NCBI RefSeq assembly: GCF_004331345.1
Contig: NZ_SJJZ01000003.1
Location: forward strand, 1,550,001-1,614,000
DNA: 64,000 nt
Source: Kribbella soli
Lineage (GTDB): Bacteria > Actinomycetota > Actinomycetes > Propionibacteriales > Kribbellaceae
Reading direction: 5' to 3'
In this document: positions 17,308 through 26,129 of the stretch, piece after piece
How positions within the stretch are numbered: position 1 is the stretch's first letter
Layout: every line of letters begins with the position of its first letter
The notes under the pieces: generated by a model
The model's input: the letters and a program-made list of their open reading frames with translations, nothing else
What the model was told of the DNA's origin: nothing
Database searches by the model: none
Program-made: the position numbers and the translations under genes

Positions 17308-17385
<78 letters not shown>

Positions 17386-18207: not shown

Positions 18208-18411
18208 TCACCGACTCGCCGCGACGTACGGCGTCACCGCGCAGGCGACCTGAGCACCAACGACTGTGACCGCGAGCGCGAGGCCGAGGTGTGCATCCGA
18301 GAGAGGCCGGCCCGCGCAGAGGGCACGCTCTGTCCTCATCCACTCTGCCCAGGCGATCAGCGGCAGCAGAGCACCGGTCGCGATCAGGACGAGTGAGGCC
18401 GCGTTCCCTTC
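18208..18411 (-). pseudogene. DUF202-like membrane protein fragment
   Basis: The minus strand from about 18411 to the stop at 18208 encodes 'LVLIATGALLPLIAWAEW', then 'RTERALCAGRPLSD' and 'LALAVTVVGAQVACAV'. This is the pattern of the second half of small DUF202 proteins: a membrane helix, a basic loop with R-x-E-R-A-L, and a last helix. The first half and a credible start are missing (the frame continues upstream as Arg/Pro-rich noise), so it is a remnant rather than a working gene. Confidence 0.45.
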
Positions 18412-18522
18412 GCCGCTTCTACAACCTCGCCTGCGAGTGTGCAGCCCTTGGCAGCCCTGACGATCGCAGTGGGCGGGTGTTCCTCGCTGCTCCACCCATG
18501 TCCGTGGCGATGTCGGCACGGG

Positions 18523-18551
18523 CGGCAACCTTTTCGGTTCCGGTGGCAACT
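18523..18551 (+). promoter_or_regulatory. Candidate ECF promoter of the expansin gene
   Basis: CGGCAACCTTT at 18523-18533 and the bases to 18551 align without gaps with 21102-21130 in front of the GH74 gene (23 of 29 identical). GCAACC is placed like an ECF -35 element, with the conserved ACT at 18549-18551 about 18 bases further. The start codon lies 53 bases downstream. A second GGCAAC is at 18545-18550. Confidence 0.55.
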
Positions 18552-18603
18552 GCGCTGTGGAACGTCGACTGGATCTACCGAACGGATGGACATGAGGACA
18601 ACG

Positions 18604-19608
18604 ATGCACGGCGCGGCGGAGCCGCTGCGCAAGCGCCGGCGGGCCATCGGCATTCCGCTGGTTCTGCTGGCCGTCGGCGTTGTGGTCTGCCTGGCCGCGG
18701 CGCTCCTCATCAAGGGCGGCGCTGATACCCGGCGTACGGCCGACGAGTCCGTTCTTGCTGCCTCGGCGAGCGTCGCGGCCGATTCCGGCTCACCGACCAT
18801 GGCGGCCGACGCCACGACGGCACCGACGATGGCGCCGGTAACGAGCCCGCCGCCATCGCCCCGCGGTACCCCAACCCCGTCGACCGCCAGCAGGCCGCCA
18901 ACCGCGTCTCGCAGCCCGCGCACGCCTGCCAACAGCCCGCGCACGCCTTCCAGCACCCCGCGTCCAGAATCCGCGGTGTCCACGGGGTCTCTGGCCGGAC
19001 GGATCAAGCCCGCCATCCGTTACCGGGGCGTCGCGACCGCCTACGAGGCGGGTGACGGGAATGGTGCCTGCCTCTACGGCCCGTCCGGCGACCTCATGAT
19101 CGCGGCGATGAACCATACCGACTACGAGTCGGCCAAGGCATGCGGAGCGTACGTCCTGGTCCGCGCCGCCAACGGGGCTTCCATCACGGTGCGGATTGTC
19201 AACGAGTGCCCGTTGCCCTGTGCACCCGGGCAACTCGACCTCAGTCAACAAGCGTTCTCCAGACTCGCCAACCTCTCCGTCGGCCGGCTCCCGATCACCT
19301 GGACGCTGGTGAGCCCCGCCGCGTCCGGCACTGTCTCGATCCGGTACAAGTCCGGCTCCAGTCCGTACTGGTGCGGCGTCCAGGTGATCGGCCACCGCAA
19401 CCCGGTGGCCGCGCTCGAGGTCCGGACCGCCAAAGGCTGGCGAAAGCTCCACCGCACCGGCTACAACTACTTCCTCGCCCCCGACGGCGACGGATGCGGC
19501 AGAGCGATCAGGGTCACCGACGTCTACGGTGAGCGGCTGACCATCGACGGGATCGCCCTCAAACCGGACGTCGCGCAGCCGACCCGAGTCCAGTTCGCCC
19601 GGCATTGA
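18604..19608 (+). CDS. Bacterial expansin-like protein (EXLX-type)
   Basis: 334 residues. Three in-frame ATGs exist (18586, 18592, 18604); GAGGA at 18594-18598 favours 18604. Residues 14-37 are a membrane helix or uncleaved signal, 45-130 a Ser/Pro/Thr linker. Residues 139-235 fit the six-stranded double-psi barrel ('GVATAYEAGDGNGACLYG', 'QLDLSQQAF') and 240-334 the CBM63-like domain ('SPYWCGVQVIGHRNPVAALEV' as start). Expansins loosen cellulose/xyloglucan contacts without hydrolysis. By recalled alignment with BsEXLX1, the LDLS Asp (Asp82 there) is kept, while the Asp71 position reads Asn in 'VNECP'. Neighbouring GH74 and the shared promoter motif suggest joint action on plant wall. Confidence 0.85.
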   Translation: MHGAAEPLRKRRRAIGIPLVLLAVGVVVCLAAALLIKGGADTRRTADESVLAASASVAADSGSPTMAADATTAPTMAPVTSPPPSPRGTPTPSTASRPPTASRSPRTPANSPRTPSSTPRPESAVSTGSLAGRIKPAIRYRGVATAYEAGDGNGACLYGPSGDLMIAAMNHTDYESAKACGAYVLVRAANGASITVRIVNECPLPCAPGQLDLSQQAFSRLANLSVGRLPITWTLVSPAASGTVSIRYKSGSSPYWCGVQVIGHRNPVAALEVRTAKGWRKLHRTGYNYFLAPDGDGCGRAIRVTDVYGERLTIDGIALKPDVAQPTRVQFARH

Positions 19609-19738
19609 CCGTGCCGCCCGTCCATCGTCAGGACTGTCTCCTCCACGGGCGATCGCCCTCCGGCAGGCGGTGAGGGGCACTGTTACGCTCGGCCCGATTG
19701 TCAACGCGCACATTGCAAGGAGAGGGCAGCCGCGGGAG

Positions 19739-20269
19739 ATGCTGGTCGACGACGCGGCCGCGGAGTTCCACGATTTCTTCGAACGCCACTACGCCGAACT
19801 GGCGCGTCTCGCCTACCTCCTGACGGGCGAGAAGGACGTGGCCGACGACCTCGCCGCCGATGCGCTGGTCGCTCTGTGGCATCGCTGGGACCGGCTGCGG
19901 GCAGCGCAACACCCGGTCGCTTACGCCCGCGGCGTGGTGGCCAACCTGGCACGGGAATGGATCCGGAGCAGGGTCCGCGAGCGACGGCGAGTAGCGCTGT
20001 TCTGGTCCCGCAGTACGGAGTTGGTGGATGGGCCGGACGTTGCGGGCGTGCTCGACGTCCGGGCCGCGCTCTCCCGGCTGCCGTTCCGCAAGCGGGCGTG
20101 CGTGGTCCTGCGCCACGCCTTCGACCTGTCGGAGAAGGACACCGCTGCTGCGCTGGGCATCTCGGTCGGTACGGTGAAAAGCCAGACCTCGAAGGGGATG
20201 GCCGAGCTGGAATCGGTGCTCGGCGCGGAAGCGGTCGGCGAACTGGCGGCAGGAAGGAGGAACCGGTGA
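19739..20269 (+). CDS. SigE-family ECF RNA polymerase sigma factor
   Basis: 176 residues from the ATG at 19739; AAGGAGAGG ends 13 bases before it, a long spacing, so an earlier start in the open frame (19670) cannot be excluded. Region 2 is at about 15-80 ('LARLAYLLTGEKDVADDLAADALVALW' in two pieces) and region 4 at about 115-165 ('LSRLPFRKRACVVLRHAFDLSEKD', 'ISVGTVKSQTSKGM' nearby). The stop overlaps the GTG of a membrane protein gene (GTGA at 20266-20269), the expected anti-sigma partner. It lies between expansin and GH74 genes that share a promoter-like motif, so it is the best candidate to transcribe both. Confidence 0.92.
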   Translation: MLVDDAAAEFHDFFERHYAELARLAYLLTGEKDVADDLAADALVALWHRWDRLRAAQHPVAYARGVVANLAREWIRSRVRERRRVALFWSRSTELVDGPDVAGVLDVRAALSRLPFRKRACVVLRHAFDLSEKDTAAALGISVGTVKSQTSKGMAELESVLGAEAVGELAAGRRNR

Positions 20270-21054
20270 ACGACGAGATCGGCCGACGACTGCGAGATGC
20301 CGCCGAGGCTCACGAGCCCAACCGCGCAAGGATCCTGGCGCGCGTGGAGCGCGGCGCGGCCGACCCCAACGTCCGGCACCGCACACCTTCGATCGCGAGA
20401 TCATGGCCCCGGGCGGCAATCGTCGGTCTCATCGCCGCCGCCACCCTGGCGACCGGTGGTCTCGCCGCCGCTGTCGCCGCCATCGGCGGAGCTCAGTCGC
20501 CGCCGGCCACCGCCCCCACTCCCACGGTCCCTTCCCGGACAGTCCCCTCCCCAACTGTCACGTCCGCTCCGACGCCATCAACCCGCACCACCACTACCGG
20601 TCCGGCCCCGACCACCACCTCGCGCAGCGTGCGCCCGACTCCGCCGGCTGGCAGCCGGGTCAGTGACGGGCCGTTGTGGTCCGAAGGCTCGCTGGACGTG
20701 CACAGCACCATCTACTGGGCCCAGAACAACCTGACTCTCAAGACCACCGAGCCGCTCACCTCGCTCACCGCGGAGCTGCGCGTTGCCCAGACCGGCGGCG
20801 TGCGGAACACCGGCAACTGGCAGACCCTGCCGAGCGACGACTTCACCGTCACCGTTCAGGAGTCCGGCGGTGCGCTGCTCTACCGCTGGGCCCTCAAGCC
20901 GGGCCGCACCGTGCCGGCCGGACAACACGAGTTCGCCGTCCAGTACAACCACGCCACCGGCGTCCGCAAGGTCAAGCGCGACAGCTACCACGTCCACGCC
21001 CAGAGCTCAGGTCGTTCCGTCGCAGTCTGGGGAGGGTTCGCCTCGCCCCGGTGA
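20266..21054 (+). CDS. Membrane anti-sigma-like protein with extracellular beta-rich domain
   Basis: 262 residues from the GTG at 20266 overlapping the sigma stop. Residues 1-45 are a charged cytosolic part ('EIGRRLRDAAEAHEPNRARIL'-like), 47-74 one membrane helix, 78-130 a Thr/Pro/Ser linker of the kind seen between wall-spanning modules. Residues 135-262 form a beta-rich outer domain with several aromatics ('STIYWAQNN', 'TGNWQTLP', 'LLYRWALKPG', 'HEFAVQYNH'). The layout parallels RsgI-type anti-sigma factors of clostridia, which sense polysaccharide outside with a carbohydrate-binding module. I cannot name the outer domain; carbohydrate sensing is inferred from the flanking expansin and GH74 genes. 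Confidence 0.7.
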   Translation: MNDEIGRRLRDAAEAHEPNRARILARVERGAADPNVRHRTPSIARSWPRAAIVGLIAAATLATGGLAAAVAAIGGAQSPPATAPTPTVPSRTVPSPTVTSAPTPSTRTTTTGPAPTTTSRSVRPTPPAGSRVSDGPLWSEGSLDVHSTIYWAQNNLTLKTTEPLTSLTAELRVAQTGGVRNTGNWQTLPSDDFTVTVQESGGALLYRWALKPGRTVPAGQHEFAVQYNHATGVRKVKRDSYHVHAQSSGRSVAVWGGFASPR

Positions 21055-21101
21055 GGACGGTCCCGCACGTTCATCGCCGGCAGCAAAAAGATCCCGGCCC
21101 G

Positions 21102-21130
21102 CGGCAACCTTTGCCGTGCCTGTGACCACT
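21102..21130 (+). promoter_or_regulatory. Candidate ECF promoter of the GH74 gene
   Basis: CGGCAACCTTT at 21102-21112 and the following bases match the element before the expansin gene (23 of 29 columns identical, same spacing to a shared ACT at 21128-21130). It lies 75 bases upstream of the GH74 ATG and 48 bases after the anti-sigma-like gene, so GH74 need not depend on read-through from the sigma operon. Confidence 0.55.
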
Positions 21131-21205
21131 AGGGGGCGGATCAGGCCGCTCCGTTGCCTGGATCCGTCTTCCTCCGGTGAATGACAGGCAAGGAGTACAT
21201 CCTCC

Positions 21206-23821
21206 ATGGACAACCCCACGCGCCGCGGGCGTTACCGCGGCCGCTGGACCGCCACCGGTCTGCTGGTCGGCGTGCCCGCCATCGTCGTACCGTGCCTCCT
21301 GTTCGCGCAGCAGGACTCGCAGGCCGCGACGATCGACGGCAACGCCTACTATCAGCTGGTCTCCGTGCGCAGCGGCAAGGTGCTCGACGTCAATGGCTTC
21401 TCCACCGCCGACGGCGCCCGTATCCAGCAGTGGACCGACCAGCACACTGCCAACCAGCAGTGGACGCTGAGGGCCACCGGGAACGGCTACTACGAGTTGG
21501 TGAACCGTAACAGCGGCAAAGTGCTGGGCATAGCGGGCGATTCGACCGCCAACGCGGCGACCGCCGAGCAACAGACCGACAGCCCCTCCACCGCCCAGGA
21601 GTGGAAGCTCAATGAGGTGAGCGGATCCGACGCCGTCACCTTCACCTCCCGCAAGAGCGGCCAGCTCCTGGACGTCTCCGGAAACTCCACCGCGCAGGGG
21701 GCTGCAGTCATCCAGTTCCCGGGTACGGGCGGCACCAACCAGCAATGGAAGCTGGTGAAGTTGGACCAGCCCGAGACGCCCGGGTCCGGACCCTATGCGT
21801 GGAAGAACGCGCAGGTGGTGGGCGGCGGATACGTCACCGGTCTGGTGTTCAACCCGCGCGAGAAGGGCCTGCTGTACGCGCGCACAGACATGGGCGGCGC
21901 CTACCGCTGGGACACCGCGGCCGAGCAGTGGATCCCGCTGACCGACTGGCTCGGCGAGAAGGACTGGAACCTGCTGGGCATAGATGCGCTGGCCACCGAC
22001 CCCGTCGACCCCAACCGGCTCTACCTCGCGACGGGCACCTACACCAACGAGTGGGCCGGCAACGGCGCGATCTTGCGCTCCACCGACCGGGGCCGCACCT
22101 TCCAGCGCACCGATCTGCCGTTCAAGCTGGGCAGCAACGAACCCGGCCGCGGGGCGAGCGAGCGGCTCGTGATCGACCCCGCGGACCACGGCACCCTGCT
22201 ACTGGGCACCCGCAAGAACGGCCTGTGGCGCAGCACCGACTACGGCACGACATGGAGTCAGGTCTCCTCGTTCCCCGTCAAGGACGGGGCGAGCAGCGGC
22301 GCGGGCGTCTCCTTCGTGACGTACGGCCCGGCCGGCAGCAACACGGTCTACGTCGGCGTCAACGACAAGGACAAATCCCTGTATCGCTCCACCGACGGCG
22401 GCAACAGCTGGCAGGCCATCTCCGGGCGGCCCACCGGCCAGATGCCGCAGCACGGTGTCGTCTCCCGTGACGGTTCGCTGTACCTGACGTACAGCAACGA
22501 CATCGGCCCCAACGACGCGACTGCGGGCTCGGTGTGGAAGTACACGCCGTCCGGCGGCGCGTGGAAGAACATCTCCCCGTCCCAGGGCAGTTACGGGTTC
22601 TCCGGTCTGGCCGTCGACCCGCAGAAGCCGTCCACGGTGATGGTCACCACCCTCGACCGCTGGTGGCCCCAAGACGAGCTGTACCGGACCACCGACGGCG
22701 GTACGACCTGGAAGGCGCTGGCTGACAAGTCGGTGCGGGACGCCTCCGCCGCTCCTTACGTCGGTACCGGCATCGGGCACTGGATGACCGCGCTGGCCAT
22801 CGATCCTTTCGACTCCGGGCACGTGCTGTACGGCACCGGCAACGGTATCTGGCGCAGCAAGGACGCGAGCGCCTCCGACAGCGGCGGTACCAGCCACTGG
22901 ACCGCCGGGGCCCGGGGGCTGGAGGAGACCTCGCTGGCGGACGCGATCGCCCCTCCCGGCGGCGCCGCCGTCATCACCTCCATGGGCGACCAGGGCGGCT
23001 TCCGCCACGACTCCCTGACCGAGGTGCCCGCCGGACGGCTGAAGAACCCGCTGATGGGCAGCAGCACCGACATCGATTTCGCCCAGTCGGCCCCCGCGGT
23101 GATGGTCCGCGTCGGCACTGGCGGCGCGCAGGACGGCGCCTACTCCACCGACGGCGGCAGCAGCTGGAACGGCTTCATGGCAGAGCCGGTGGGCAGCGCG
23201 AACAGCGGCCATGTCGCGCTCGCGGCGGACGGCTCCACCATCGTCTGGACCGAGGCCGGCCAGGCCCCGTACCGCTCGACCGACAAGGGAGCGAGCTGGT
23301 CGAAGGTCAGCGGCCTGGGCACCGACGCCGTGGTCGTCGCCGACCGCTCCGCGGCCAATACGTTCTACTCACTCACGGGCGGCACGCTCTACGCCGGCAC
23401 CGACGGCGGCGCGACCTTCACCGCCCGCGCGGGCAATCTGCCTGCCGGCCGGCTCACGGCCGTCCCCGGCATCGCAGGAGACCTGTGGATCTCCGGCGGC
23501 GGCAAGGGACTGCTGCACTCCACCGATGGGGGCCGCAACTTCACCGCGCTCACCTCGGTGCAGTCCGCGTCCACCCTCGGCTTCGGCAAGGCCGCGCCGG
23601 GCACCACCTACCAGGCCCTGTACCTGATCGGCACCGTCAAGAACGTCACCGGAGTCTTCCGCTCCACCGACAACGGCGCCACCTGGGTCCGCATCAACGA
23701 CGACGCCCACCAGTGGGGCAGCATCGGCGGAGTTGGCATCATCACCGGTGACCCCGACACCTACGGCCGCGTCTACATCGGCACCAACGGACGCGGCCTG
23801 CAGTACGGCGACCCGTCCTGA
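21206..23821 (+). CDS. Secreted GH74-family xyloglucanase-type enzyme with N-terminal RICIN/CBM13 domain
   Basis: 871 residues. Residues 1-41 are a signal peptide with a basic start (RRGRYRGRW) and cleavage near 'SQAA'. Residues 45-186 are a ricin-type beta-trefoil with QxW repeats ('ANQQWTLR', 'TAQEWKLN', 'TNQQWKLV'). From about 200 to the end come the many-bladed propellers of GH74 with 'STDRGRTF'/'STDGGNSW' Asp-box-like repeats. The catalytic pair fits Asp228 in 'ARTDMGGAYRW' and Asp595 in 'GDQGGFRH'. GH74 enzymes cut xyloglucan or related beta-1,4-glucans; whether it is endo or exo cannot be read. Fusing the sugar-binding domain at the N-terminus is less usual than C-terminal CBMs. Codon use looks more Streptomyces-like than its neighbours, a visual impression only. 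Confidence 0.9.
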   Translation: MDNPTRRGRYRGRWTATGLLVGVPAIVVPCLLFAQQDSQAATIDGNAYYQLVSVRSGKVLDVNGFSTADGARIQQWTDQHTANQQWTLRATGNGYYELVNRNSGKVLGIAGDSTANAATAEQQTDSPSTAQEWKLNEVSGSDAVTFTSRKSGQLLDVSGNSTAQGAAVIQFPGTGGTNQQWKLVKLDQPETPGSGPYAWKNAQVVGGGYVTGLVFNPREKGLLYARTDMGGAYRWDTAAEQWIPLTDWLGEKDWNLLGIDALATDPVDPNRLYLATGTYTNEWAGNGAILRSTDRGRTFQRTDLPFKLGSNEPGRGASERLVIDPADHGTLLLGTRKNGLWRSTDYGTTWSQVSSFPVKDGASSGAGVSFVTYGPAGSNTVYVGVNDKDKSLYRSTDGGNSWQAISGRPTGQMPQHGVVSRDGSLYLTYSNDIGPNDATAGSVWKYTPSGGAWKNISPSQGSYGFSGLAVDPQKPSTVMVTTLDRWWPQDELYRTTDGGTTWKALADKSVRDASAAPYVGTGIGHWMTALAIDPFDSGHVLYGTGNGIWRSKDASASDSGGTSHWTAGARGLEETSLADAIAPPGGAAVITSMGDQGGFRHDSLTEVPAGRLKNPLMGSSTDIDFAQSAPAVMVRVGTGGAQDGAYSTDGGSSWNGFMAEPVGSANSGHVALAADGSTIVWTEAGQAPYRSTDKGASWSKVSGLGTDAVVVADRSAANTFYSLTGGTLYAGTDGGATFTARAGNLPAGRLTAVPGIAGDLWISGGGKGLLHSTDGGRNFTALTSVQSASTLGFGKAAPGTTYQALYLIGTVKNVTGVFRSTDNGATWVRINDDAHQWGSIGGVGIITGDPDTYGRVYIGTNGRGLQYGDPS

Positions 23822-23836
23822 GCCACAACCCATTGA

Positions 23837-23871
23837 GCTCCGGCCAGCCTGCCAGCAGGCTGACCCGGAGC
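23837..23871 (+). terminator. Hairpin terminator after GH74
   Basis: GCTCCGG (23837-23843) pairs with CCGGAGC (23865-23871), with an inner stem AGCCTG/CAGGCT. It starts 16 bases after the GH74 stop and separates it from the next gene. Confidence 0.65.
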
Positions 23872-23987
23872 GCGGCTGCTGCGGTCATGGCCGGACATCA
23901 AGGCTGTCCAAAGGCTTTGCCGAATCCATCGATGCCGCGTCGCATTGCTGACTAGGGTGGGCGCCGGATTCGAGGAGGACGACAGAC

Positions 23988-26129
23988 TTGAGACGCCTGA
24001 TCGGGGCTGTGGTTGTGCTCGCCGCTCTGGGGCTACAGCCCGTGCCGGCTGCCGCGGCTGGGAGCGGTGACATCACGCTCGACATCCTGGCGAACCGTGA
24101 CGTCACCCTGACCGGTGATGCCTTGGTGAACGTGCCCGATGGAACCACGACGTACGACGGGGCGATCCGCGGCGAAGGAACGCTGCGGATCGCGGGCAGC
24201 GGCACGTTGATCCTCACCAAGGACAGCGACTTCTCGTTGCCCAAGGCAAGTCAACGGCAGACGGTCCGGATCCTCGGTGGCAACCACCCGTACGTCGTGG
24301 TCACGCGCCCCGATCCGCCGGCGGTCGTCGTCGACAAGGGCGCGACTCTGCAGTACGGCAACGGCGGCGGCACCGGACTGATCGGCAGATTCCCGTACGG
24401 CACGCCCGGCTACCAGCTCAACCAGGACAACATCGAGGTGAACGGCACCCTGCGGTTGTCGCTCACCCGGTCCTTCAACCTCGGCACGATCAGCGGCTCC
24501 GGGCTGATCAGCCAACCACGGTTCCTCTGGGGCACCCTTGATCTGGCGGGCACCAATCCGTTCTCGGGCGTGATCGACAACGGCACCCAGGCGTCCGCCG
24601 GCAAACCGGAGACCACTGTCGCGCTGCCGAACGCCCGGGCCATCCTCAACCAAGGCACCTGGACGATCGACACCCCGCTGCACCAGACCGTCACCATTCG
24701 GCAGAACTTCTACCAACGTGAGTACGGCAGCGACATCAACGTCCAGTCCCGCCCCGGCAGCAAAGTGATCCTGACCGGCCAGTACAGCTACTCGGACCGT
24801 GGTGGCGACACCGACCCGTCGCTGAGCGACCCGGCGATCAACTGGCGGAAGATCCCGCACGACCTGAACAAGCGCGGCACCAACATCAAGGGCGCCGACG
24901 TCCAGTGGGGCGACGGCAGTACGCACAAGATCTTCATGCCAGGCACCGCGGACACCGTCTACATCAACCTGCTGGCCGCGCGGTTCCGCTCCAAACTCAC
25001 CTTCGCCTACAACGGCCCGGTCACGCTCGGCGCCCCGATCGGTGGCGGTGTTTTTCACGACACCCTGAAGTCGCCTGGCGCCGGTGACGTCGTGATCAAG
25101 GCGGTCCGTGGCAACGACGTGACATTCGCCGCCGACCAGTACTACGACGGCTCGACGACGATCGAGAAGGGTGCGACCCTTCGCCTCGGAAGTGGACGGC
25201 CCGGAGGTGACGGCAGCCTGTTGACGAAGGCCGCGTTGTTCCGCGTCGTCAACGAGGGTTCGCTGGTGGTTCGCAACGCCGGCAAGGCGATCACGCTGTC
25301 GAAGATCAGCGGCACCGGTTCACTGACTCAGGCCGGCGCAGCGACGACTCGCCTCGCCGGGGCGCTGACCTACACCGGCACCACCACGATCTCGCGCGGA
25401 GTCCTAGCGCTCACCGGCGGCAGCCTGACGTCCAGCAGCGCCGTGATACTCACCACGTCCGGCGCCAAGCTCGATCTGACCAAGGCCGGCAACCAGACAC
25501 TCCGAAACCTCAGCCAGGCCTCCGGCACCACAGTCCTGTACGGCGATCGCGCCACGCTCACCTTGAGCCGTCAGTCCAAGCTCTCCGGCACCCTCCAGGG
25601 CGGCCGGCTCGTCAACGCCGGCACCACCGGCGGGACGTTCACCGTCAAGGGCGATTTCGAGCAGACTCCCGACGGTCGATTGTCCACCCGAGCGACCGGT
25701 ACGCCGGTCCGCGTGTCCGGCAGGGTATCGCTGGCCGGAAAGCTCGACCTCACCCCGCCGGCCAAGCTCACCAAGGAAACCCTGCTGATCGCCAACGACG
25801 GCACCGACCCGATCGCCGGCGCGTTCACCAACGTCCCCGAAGGCGCCCGGAGCGCGGGGTACCAGATCACCTACAAGGGCGGCGACGGCAACGACGTCAC
25901 GCTGAAGCCCGTCAAGGCGAAGGCAGCGCTCGACCAGCCCACCGCGCACAACACGCCCCCGGCAACCACCACGACTGCGGCTGACGGCTTCTCCCTGCGC
26001 CTCCCGGCCACCTTCGCGACCGGAGCCCTCGCGCTCCTCGCCTTCATCCTGATCGTCGTCCGCCTCCGACGCGCTCGCCCGCGGCCCGGAGGACGTCGGC
26101 GGTTGACGCAGAGGTCCACGCGGCTCTGA
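23988..26129 (+). CDS. Secreted beta-strand-repeat surface protein with C-terminal membrane anchor
   Basis: 713 residues. A TTG start at 23988 is fixed by GAGGAGGA (23972-23979). Residues 1-24 are a signal peptide ending 'PAAAA'. The body is a long series of short glycine-bounded strands such as 'GEGTLRIAGSGTLILTKDS', 'GALTYTGTTTISRGVLALTGG' split over blades, the pattern of autotransporter-associated beta-strand repeats in proteobacteria. There is no outer-membrane beta-barrel; instead residues about 672-692 form a membrane helix followed by an Arg-rich tail, as suits a Gram-positive. It may display a beta-helix on the wall. No catalytic motif is seen. Its 3' end overlaps the convergent GH43 gene by 86 bases. 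Confidence 0.75.
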   Translation: MRRLIGAVVVLAALGLQPVPAAAAGSGDITLDILANRDVTLTGDALVNVPDGTTTYDGAIRGEGTLRIAGSGTLILTKDSDFSLPKASQRQTVRILGGNHPYVVVTRPDPPAVVVDKGATLQYGNGGGTGLIGRFPYGTPGYQLNQDNIEVNGTLRLSLTRSFNLGTISGSGLISQPRFLWGTLDLAGTNPFSGVIDNGTQASAGKPETTVALPNARAILNQGTWTIDTPLHQTVTIRQNFYQREYGSDINVQSRPGSKVILTGQYSYSDRGGDTDPSLSDPAINWRKIPHDLNKRGTNIKGADVQWGDGSTHKIFMPGTADTVYINLLAARFRSKLTFAYNGPVTLGAPIGGGVFHDTLKSPGAGDVVIKAVRGNDVTFAADQYYDGSTTIEKGATLRLGSGRPGGDGSLLTKAALFRVVNEGSLVVRNAGKAITLSKISGTGSLTQAGAATTRLAGALTYTGTTTISRGVLALTGGSLTSSSAVILTTSGAKLDLTKAGNQTLRNLSQASGTTVLYGDRATLTLSRQSKLSGTLQGGRLVNAGTTGGTFTVKGDFEQTPDGRLSTRATGTPVRVSGRVSLAGKLDLTPPAKLTKETLLIANDGTDPIAGAFTNVPEGARSAGYQITYKGGDGNDVTLKPVKAKAALDQPTAHNTPPATTTTAADGFSLRLPATFATGALALLAFILIVVRLRRARPRPGGRRRLTQRSTRL

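What the first reader, a model, noticed from the sequence alone, without database searches (positions are those of the whole stretch)
18523..21130. Expansin and GH74 genes share an ECF-type promoter element around a sigma/anti-sigma pair
CGGCAACCTTT and the 18 bases after it are conserved without gaps (23 of 29 identical) upstream of the expansin gene (18523) and of the GH74 gene (21102). Between them lies a SigE-family sigma gene coupled to a membrane anti-sigma-like gene. No other copy was noticed in the window. This is the layout of a local plant-wall regulon: one sigma factor, two wall-loosening/cutting products, and a sensor. It resembles clostridial SigI/RsgI in logic but with a different sigma class.
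Basis: partly seen in the sequence, partly recalled or inferred. Interest (0 to 1): 0.75.

Follow-up and report, generated by a model that had tools for sequence, protein, structure and literature searches.

The report
ECF sigma switch for plant-wall enzymes
Two plant-cell-wall genes beside a sigma/anti-sigma gene pair in a soil actinobacterium share a promoter-like DNA element that recurs, almost always with the same spacing, in front of expansin, pectin-, xylan- and xyloglucan-degrading genes in dozens of bacteria that carry the same sigma factor, so it very likely marks a dedicated plant-wall regulon.

Summary
CGGCAACCTTT occurs only at 18523 and 21102 in the window; the 29-mers match at 23 of 29. 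The strict element GGCAACCTTT-N11-GRCNACT occurs twice in the 8.8 Mb genome (0.004 expected). It tracks the sigma/anti-sigma locus: 9 of 38 genus genomes have it, the same 9 with a near-full-length anti-sigma match. In 246 genomes of a second genus (unnamed; inferred Streptomyces) 84 have it (133 sites, reversed control 0); 79 of those 84 have the sigma, against 65 of the other 162. With N7-N15 allowed, 63 of 64 sites have N11. Of 118 examined sites other than those at the Kribbella module, 93 precede recognisable plant-wall genes, 14 a ricin-lectin protein with an unknown half, 2 the sigma gene, 9 neither. So this is a cross-genus regulon, compact in Kribbella, dispersed in the second genus. 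Binding by this sigma, anti-sigma activity and the signal are inferred. It works like SigI/RsgI but fails its membership tests. New variant of a known kind.

The parts
18523..18551 (+). Promoter element of the expansin gene: C + GGCAACCTTT-N11-GGCAACT; -35-like GGCAACC, -10-like CAACT(G)
   Evidence: exact copy before expansin in all 9 genus loci, exact in plasmid L084, one mismatch in plasmid L085, none seen in plasmid L086; exact-match survey
18604..19608 (+). Expansin EXLX1-family protein with an N-terminal hydrophobic segment and Pro/Thr-rich linker (start 18604 preferred because GAGGA stands before it; 18589 also possible)
   Evidence: NF041144 240 bits, scanned from 18589; in L080 the stretch ATGAGGACAA begins 7 bases after the ACT of the element (site line)
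19680..19736 (+). Conserved block before the sigma gene (TACGCT at 19684-19689, then TTGTCAACGCGCACA): candidate basal promoter/operator of the sigma/anti-sigma pair
   Evidence: TACGCT kept in 11 of the 12 loci printed (by eye); function not tested; the sigma-70 consensus scan found no promoter there
19739..20269 (+). ECF sigma factor, SigE family, 176 aa
   Evidence: TIGR02983 164 bits; Sigma70_r2 and r4_2
20266..21054 (+). Anti-sigma-like membrane protein, 262 aa: short conserved N-terminal helical segment, one membrane helix, Pro/Thr linker, conserved C-terminal domain, tentatively all-beta
   Evidence: 4-base overlap with the sigma gene (sequence); alignment of 28 homologues; low-confidence models; no Pfam hit better than E 0.074 in 28 members
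21102..21130 (+). Promoter element of the GH74-type gene: C + GGCAACCTTT-N11-GACCACT
   Evidence: present before this gene in all 5 genus loci that have it here (one, L077, with one extra base) and in plasmids L084 and L085, where the gene is moved or inverted; an imperfect form in L184
21206..23821 (+). Secreted ricin-lectin + BNR/Sortilin-type propeller protein (GH74-type xyloglucanase by resemblance)
   Evidence: PF14200, PF15902, PF02012
23988..26129 (+). Large protein, conserved with the module in four genus relatives; membership in the regulon uncertain (no element of its own seen)
   Evidence: blastn similarity runs on to about 26071 in L072/L076, L073/L075, L074 and L077

Best explanation
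The element is the -35/-10 promoter read by the SigE-family ECF sigma encoded between the two target genes. The membrane protein from the overlapping frame is its anti-sigma factor: a short cytoplasmic N-terminus holds the sigma, and an outer domain on a flexible linker senses plant-wall polysaccharide or its fragments. Release of the sigma turns on expansin (loosening) and the GH74-type xyloglucanase (cutting); read-through from expansin into the sigma and anti-sigma genes would make the loop self-amplifying. In relatives the same element extends the regulon to pectin, rhamnogalacturonan, xylan and arabinan enzymes. Shown by sequence: the element, its geometry, its co-occurrence with the sigma, and the kind of downstream genes. 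Inferred: that this sigma binds it, that the membrane protein inhibits it, the signal, and the feedback.
For: (1) Element in 9 of 38 genus genomes, the same 9 whose anti-sigma match spans at least 261 of 262 residues; a tenth genome (G018) with a 61-residue partial match has no element. (2) Class sample: 11 of 394 genomes have the exact element, in two genera only, and all 11 have a sigma of at least 76% identity; sigma relatives of 68% or more occur only in those two genera. (3) Second genus: 79 of 84 element genomes have the sigma, 65 of 162 others do; Fisher 3.8e-18, relatedness not corrected. (4) One-mismatch sites in genomes without an exact site, 80 of 162 such genomes searched: 51 in 40 sigma-positive, 8 in 40 sigma-negative, reversed controls 28 and 24 (summed by hand); of 30 sites fetched (of 59), 16 of 24 in sigma-positive genomes front a regulon-type gene, 0 of 6 in sigma-negative ones front a wall gene. 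(5) Spacing: 63 of 64 sites N11 when N7-N15 allowed in 121 genomes, reversed control 1. (6) Targets: 93 of 118 plant-wall genes, 14 ricin-lectin proteins, 2 sigma genes (representatives named). (7) From the end of GGCAACC to CNACT is 16 bases; S. coelicolor sigma-E promoters printed in the passages read of PMC6767563 have GGCAACC-type -35 and 16-17 bases to a different -10, CGTCT. (8) Sigma and membrane-protein genes adjacent, mostly overlapping, in relatives.
Against: No transcript, binding or genetic data. 5 of 84 element genomes of the second genus gave no sigma hit at E<=1e-50: G431 is 79% complete, G537 has the anti-sigma beside the element near a contig end, G642 has a disrupted locus, G543 and G644 are unexplained. 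65 sigma genomes have no exact site, and sigma-positive genomes also have many reversed one-mismatch matches (28), so single near-matches cannot be trusted. Of 118 sites, 8 front no recognised gene (one is cut by a contig end; three share one site sequence, which in the one scanned, L233, lies inside a GH3 frame on the other strand) and 1 a LacI-type gene. The membrane protein has no recognised anti-sigma or carbohydrate-binding domain.
Confidence: 0.82

Rival explanations
1. The element is a two-part operator for a transcription factor, not a promoter: in the expansin copy GGCAAC is repeated 21 bases apart, about two helical turns, as expected for a factor binding side by side.
For: The GGCAAC...GGCAAC repeat is seen before expansin in all 9 genus loci; the rigid spacing also suits two helical turns.
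Against: Only 19 of 118 further sites have GGCAACT as second half; GGCCACT, GGCGACT and GACCACT are commoner. The letters common to all sites were set by my pattern and prove nothing by themselves. The element tracks a sigma gene and its distances fit an ECF -35/-10.
Confidence: 0.1
2. It is an ECF promoter but read mainly by another sigma factor, or shared by several (for example sigma-E or another SigE-family paralogue).
For: The own genome holds 37 matches to the sigma at E<=1e-5, itself included; sigma-E promoters share the GGCAACC-type -35, and the passages read of PMC6767563 say most tested targets depend only partly on sigE.
Against: Paralogues in the own genome are at most 43% identical; the -10 half differs from CGTCT; presence follows this sigma and not merely the genus. 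Whether the paralogues occur in the element-free genomes was not searched.
Confidence: 0.07
3. The two copies are a chance or recent-duplication resemblance.
For: Only two copies in the own genome and no excess of near-matches there.
Against: 0.004 sites expected, two found; the bases around the two copies differ; both are kept across species and in plasmid loci where the GH74-type gene is moved or inverted; 133 sites against 0 reversed in 246 genomes.
Confidence: 0.01

Closest known systems
Clostridial SigI/RsgI polysaccharide-sensing systems (domain details recalled; C. thermocellum systems mentioned in passages of PMC10766802)
   Same: Sigma gene coupled to a one-helix membrane protein with an outer domain; targets are secreted plant-wall enzymes.
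   Different: Sigma is an ECF SigE-family (TIGR02983) protein; no RsgI-type or known carbohydrate-binding domain found; different promoter; different phylum.
ECF52/ECF53 of actinobacteria (predicted; passages of PMC10766802)
   Same: Actinobacterial ECF sigma signalling linked with carbohydrate-binding or hydrolase domains.
   Different: There the anti-sigma/membrane part is fused to the sigma; here sigma (176 aa) and membrane protein are separate overlapping genes.
Streptomyces coelicolor sigma-E regulon (PMC6767563, passages)
   Same: -35 of GGCAACC type and 16-17 base spacing.
   Different: -10 is CGTCT-like; the regulon serves the bacterium's own envelope, not the plant wall.

Membership tests
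ECF sigma factors, SigE family (TIGR02983) | Whole-protein score above the curated cutoff | tested here: met
   164 bits against 141.55; regions 2 and 4 matched, no region 3 match listed
SigI/RsgI | Sigma belongs to the SigI family | tested here: not met
   Best family is TIGR02983; no SigI-named model among the 25 of 53 NCBIfam hits shown
SigI/RsgI | Anti-sigma with RsgI N-terminal domain | tested here: not met
   No Pfam hit better than E 0.074, none RsgI-named, in 28 homologues
SigI/RsgI | Outer carbohydrate-binding module that senses polysaccharide | tested here: inconclusive
   No family or PDB sequence match; model too poor to judge (mean pLDDT 47; best Foldseek E 0.034)
ECF52/ECF53 | Sensor/transmembrane part fused to the sigma C-terminus | tested here: not met
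   Sigma ends shortly after region 4 at 176 aa; the membrane protein is a separate frame starting at 20266
Membrane anti-sigma factor | Gene coupled to the sigma gene; one membrane helix; cytoplasmic sigma-binding segment | tested here: inconclusive
   Overlap of 4 bases and helix at residues 49-73 of a low-confidence model; NF052375 antisigma matched weakly in 8 of 28 members at E<=1, best 2e-4; binding not testable here
Sigma-dependent promoter | Transcription start just downstream of the -10 | not testable with these tools
   No transcript data

The most novel reading that the evidence does not exclude
A previously undescribed, mobile regulatory module: an ECF sigma/anti-sigma pair with an outer sensor domain absent from Pfam that commands a coordinated plant-wall attack (loosening by expansin plus pectin, rhamnogalacturonan, xylan and xyloglucan breakdown) through one rigid promoter, and that moved from the Streptomycetaceae into Kribbella together with its promoter-tagged targets.
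Probability: 0.6. Interest if true: 0.75.

Novelty: new variant of a known kind. Interest (0 to 1): 0.64.

Why it matters
Sigma/anti-sigma control of polysaccharide-degrading enzymes is described for Clostridium thermocellum and gut Bacteroides; for the actinobacterial ECF52/53 groups a 2024 review passage says experimental validation is still missing (PMC10766802). This case gives a sigma, a candidate sensor, an exact promoter and a list of targets, expansins included, so how soil actinobacteria sense and open plant cell walls becomes directly testable with deletion strains and an in-vitro transcription assay. The promoter string also works as a genome-mining tag for plant-wall genes, including some of unknown family.

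Tried and rejected
Loose pattern GGCAACC-N12..19-ACTA: no enrichment (21 against 38 reversed). Two-mismatch survey of the genus: own genome 9 against 14 reversed; the other genomes were not summed and the site list was cut. The third GGCAACCTTT site with an ACTA nearby (G000:C2:364853) was looked at: no plant-wall gene recognised by eye among the long frames printed around it; no family search was made. Structure prediction of the outer domain and of the whole membrane protein: poor (mean pLDDT 47.3 and 38.2), so the Foldseek list (best E 0.034) is not used; a carbohydrate-binding fold stays a guess. PDB profile search: best E 0.96, nothing. Promoter/terminator consensus scan of 18400-24100: no promoter, 1 terminator-like site on the other strand, not above shuffles. 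Passages were seen of PMC6767563, PMC10766802 and PMC6295645; a term search in PMC11256431 found none of six terms; all other papers were seen in listings only. A recalled guess that an S. coelicolor relative is SCO1876 was searched (two papers listed) and not followed.

Set aside before counts: 2 of 120 extracted segments were second views of sites already counted (one search uses 118). In one search the label GH74 for L184 came from a second gene in the longer stretch; I count L184 with the ricin-lectin type (14 and 3 instead of 13 and 4). Of 123 further sites, 23 were not fetched. Labels mean a same-strand tblastn match beginning within 900 bases of the site. L072/L076 and L073/L075 are the same loci.
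Full report
Observation. The window lies in an 8.785 Mb genome, of the genus Kribbella as judged from two titled relatives.

Is it more than chance? The orthologous loci show what is conserved: GGCAACCTTT, eleven free bases, then GRCNACT. Before expansin it is exact in all nine genus genomes with the locus, and before the GH74-type gene it is present in all five of those that have that gene there (one, L077, with one extra base). In Streptomyces plasmid L084 the GH74-type gene lies before expansin, in Streptomyces plasmid L085 it is on the other strand, and both still carry the element (in L085 the second half before expansin is GGCAACC, one mismatch). The third plasmid locus, L086 of Streptantibioticus, has an imperfect element on the other strand beyond the anti-sigma gene, and none was seen before its expansin. 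In the own genome the strict string has two sites against 0.004 expected.

Does it follow the sigma factor? In the genus, 9 of 38 genomes have the strict element (15 sites, reversed control 0), the same 9 that have the anti-sigma match across the protein; the sigma lies beside it in all nine; a tenth genome has only a 61-residue partial match and no element. Fisher's test on 9/0/0/29 gives 6e-9. In a class-wide sample, 11 of 394 genomes have it, in two genera only, and all eleven carry a sigma of at least 76% identity. In 246 genomes of the second genus (unnamed, inferred Streptomyces), 84 have it at 133 sites, with no reversed match; 144 have the sigma at E<=1e-50; 79 have both, 5 the element alone, 65 the sigma alone, 97 neither (p = 3.8e-18, not corrected for relatedness). 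Of the five exceptions one assembly is 79% complete, one has the anti-sigma beside the element near a contig end, one has a disrupted locus, and two are unexplained. Of the 162 genomes without an exact site I searched 80 with one mismatch: 51 sites in 40 sigma-positive genomes, 8 in 40 sigma-negative ones, reversed controls 28 and 24 (my sums).

Is the geometry fixed? Allowing seven to fifteen bases between the halves in 121 genomes of the second genus gave 64 sites, 63 with eleven and one with twelve; reversed control 1. From the end of GGCAACC to CNACT is 16 bases; sigma-E promoters in the passages read of PMC6767563 have 16-17 bases between a GGCAACC-type -35 and a CGTCT-like -10.

What lies downstream? 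I fetched all 18 sites and 26 other than those at the Kribbella module itself (2 genus, 16 second genus) and 100 of the 123 further sites. Of 118: expansin 37, pectin lyases and esterases 26 (14+5+4+3), rhamnogalacturonan lyase 11, GH10-GH62 type 7 (one a truncated match), GH51-like arabinofuranosidase relative 8, GH74-type 3, GH43 1, together 93; ricin-lectin protein with an unknown second half 14; the sigma gene itself 2; a LacI-type regulator 1; none 8, one of them an expansin-like start cut by a contig end (L184 relabelled as told under Tried and rejected). Representatives were identified; the other labels come from tblastn against these, not from scanning every protein. Some of the second-genus sites are themselves next to a sigma gene (for example L184, L296), many are not. 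Of 30 fetched one-mismatch loci (of 59), 16 of 24 in sigma-positive genomes front a regulon-type gene (15 wall genes, 1 ricin-lectin type), and 0 of 6 in sigma-negative genomes front a wall gene; one of the six fronts an anti-sigma relative.

The sigma/anti-sigma pair. The sigma is at most 43% identical to its paralogues in the genome, but 68-86% to relatives in the second genus (of the matches listed). In 17 of 20 neighbourhoods fetched around sigma relatives a homologue of the membrane protein is detected; the three without are in family f20. In a tree of 44 rows the nine genus sequences fall inside the group formed with the second genus and the plasmids, next to the plasmid-borne type (midpoint root), and a GH74-type gene 87% identical to the window's lies beside the sigma in genome G298, so transfer of the module into Kribbella is likely. 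Among genus relatives the similarity begins close to the expansin element (18401-18521, or 18588 in L080), with no matching stretch over 120 bases before it in the roughly 2 kb or more held. The membrane protein has a conserved N-terminal segment, a predicted membrane helix, a low-complexity linker and a conserved outer domain. No family model recognises it convincingly, and structure models were too poor to name its fold.

How it most likely works. The sigma, held at the membrane, is released when the outer domain meets a plant-wall signal, and reads GGCAACC...GRCNACT to make expansin and wall-cutting enzymes. Expansin and sigma genes lie on one strand about 60-170 bases apart in the loci printed, with no terminator-like site between them in the window, so read-through could amplify the response; two second-genus loci have the element before the sigma gene with no recognised wall gene between (L268, L288). 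A conserved block with TACGCT before the sigma gene may supply the basal level. Shown: element, geometry, co-occurrence, kinds of targets. Inferred: sigma binding, inhibition, signal, feedback.

Comparison. It works like clostridial SigI/RsgI, but the sigma class and the anti-sigma domain differ, so it is not filed there; it also differs from ECF52/53, where sensor and sigma are fused (passages of PMC10766802). By score it belongs to the SigE-family ECF sigmas. I found no paper on this regulon in ten searches of the held library, which lacks most subscription journals, and I could not consult the ECF classification itself.

Noticed in passing
window 19680-19736: Strongly conserved block between expansin and the sigma gene (TACGCT, then TTGTCAACGCGCACA with TGT/ACA ends), shared with plasmid loci; looks like a second promoter with a possible operator.
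   Followed up: partly
window 23988-26129: Large protein conserved together with the GH74-type gene in four genus relatives; looks secreted and C-terminally anchored by eye.
   Followed up: no
window 17308-17381: A tRNA-Lys gene (anticodon CTT) stands about 1.1 kb before the module; the DNA between it and about 18401 gave no match in the relatives' loci, so the module may sit in a tRNA-side island.
   Followed up: partly
L302 1-1600: In genome G642 the element is followed by an insertion that looks like a transposase gene by eye; the anti-sigma match starts late and no sigma match was found: a decaying copy of the locus.
   Followed up: partly
L219, L239, L240, L258, L290: Orphan or nearly orphan elements whose expected downstream gene is missing or shortened, resembling promoters left behind after gene loss.
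   Followed up: partly
L189 5593-6573; L227 278-1282; L261 1661-2665; L239 1366-2376: A LacI-type regulator gene sits beside the sigma gene or a pectinesterase target in several genomes (L261 by its frame only), suggesting a second layer of control.
   Followed up: no
L338: Genome G454, without a sigma hit at E<=1e-50, has a one-mismatch element before an anti-sigma relative: a possible diverged version of the system.
   Followed up: no
L201-L204, L208: Sigma relatives of 57-63% identity in families f19 and f20 have a membrane-protein neighbour of only about 34% identity (L201, L202) or none detected (L203, L204, L208), and these genomes have no exact element: promoter and sensor may have changed together.
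   Followed up: no
L179 5081-6985; L184 7060-8946; L171 6104-7930: Two secreted-looking families tagged by the element lack a full Pfam assignment: a ricin-lectin protein with an unknown half and a protein with distant similarity to GH51 arabinofuranosidases; candidates for new plant-wall activities.
   Followed up: partly
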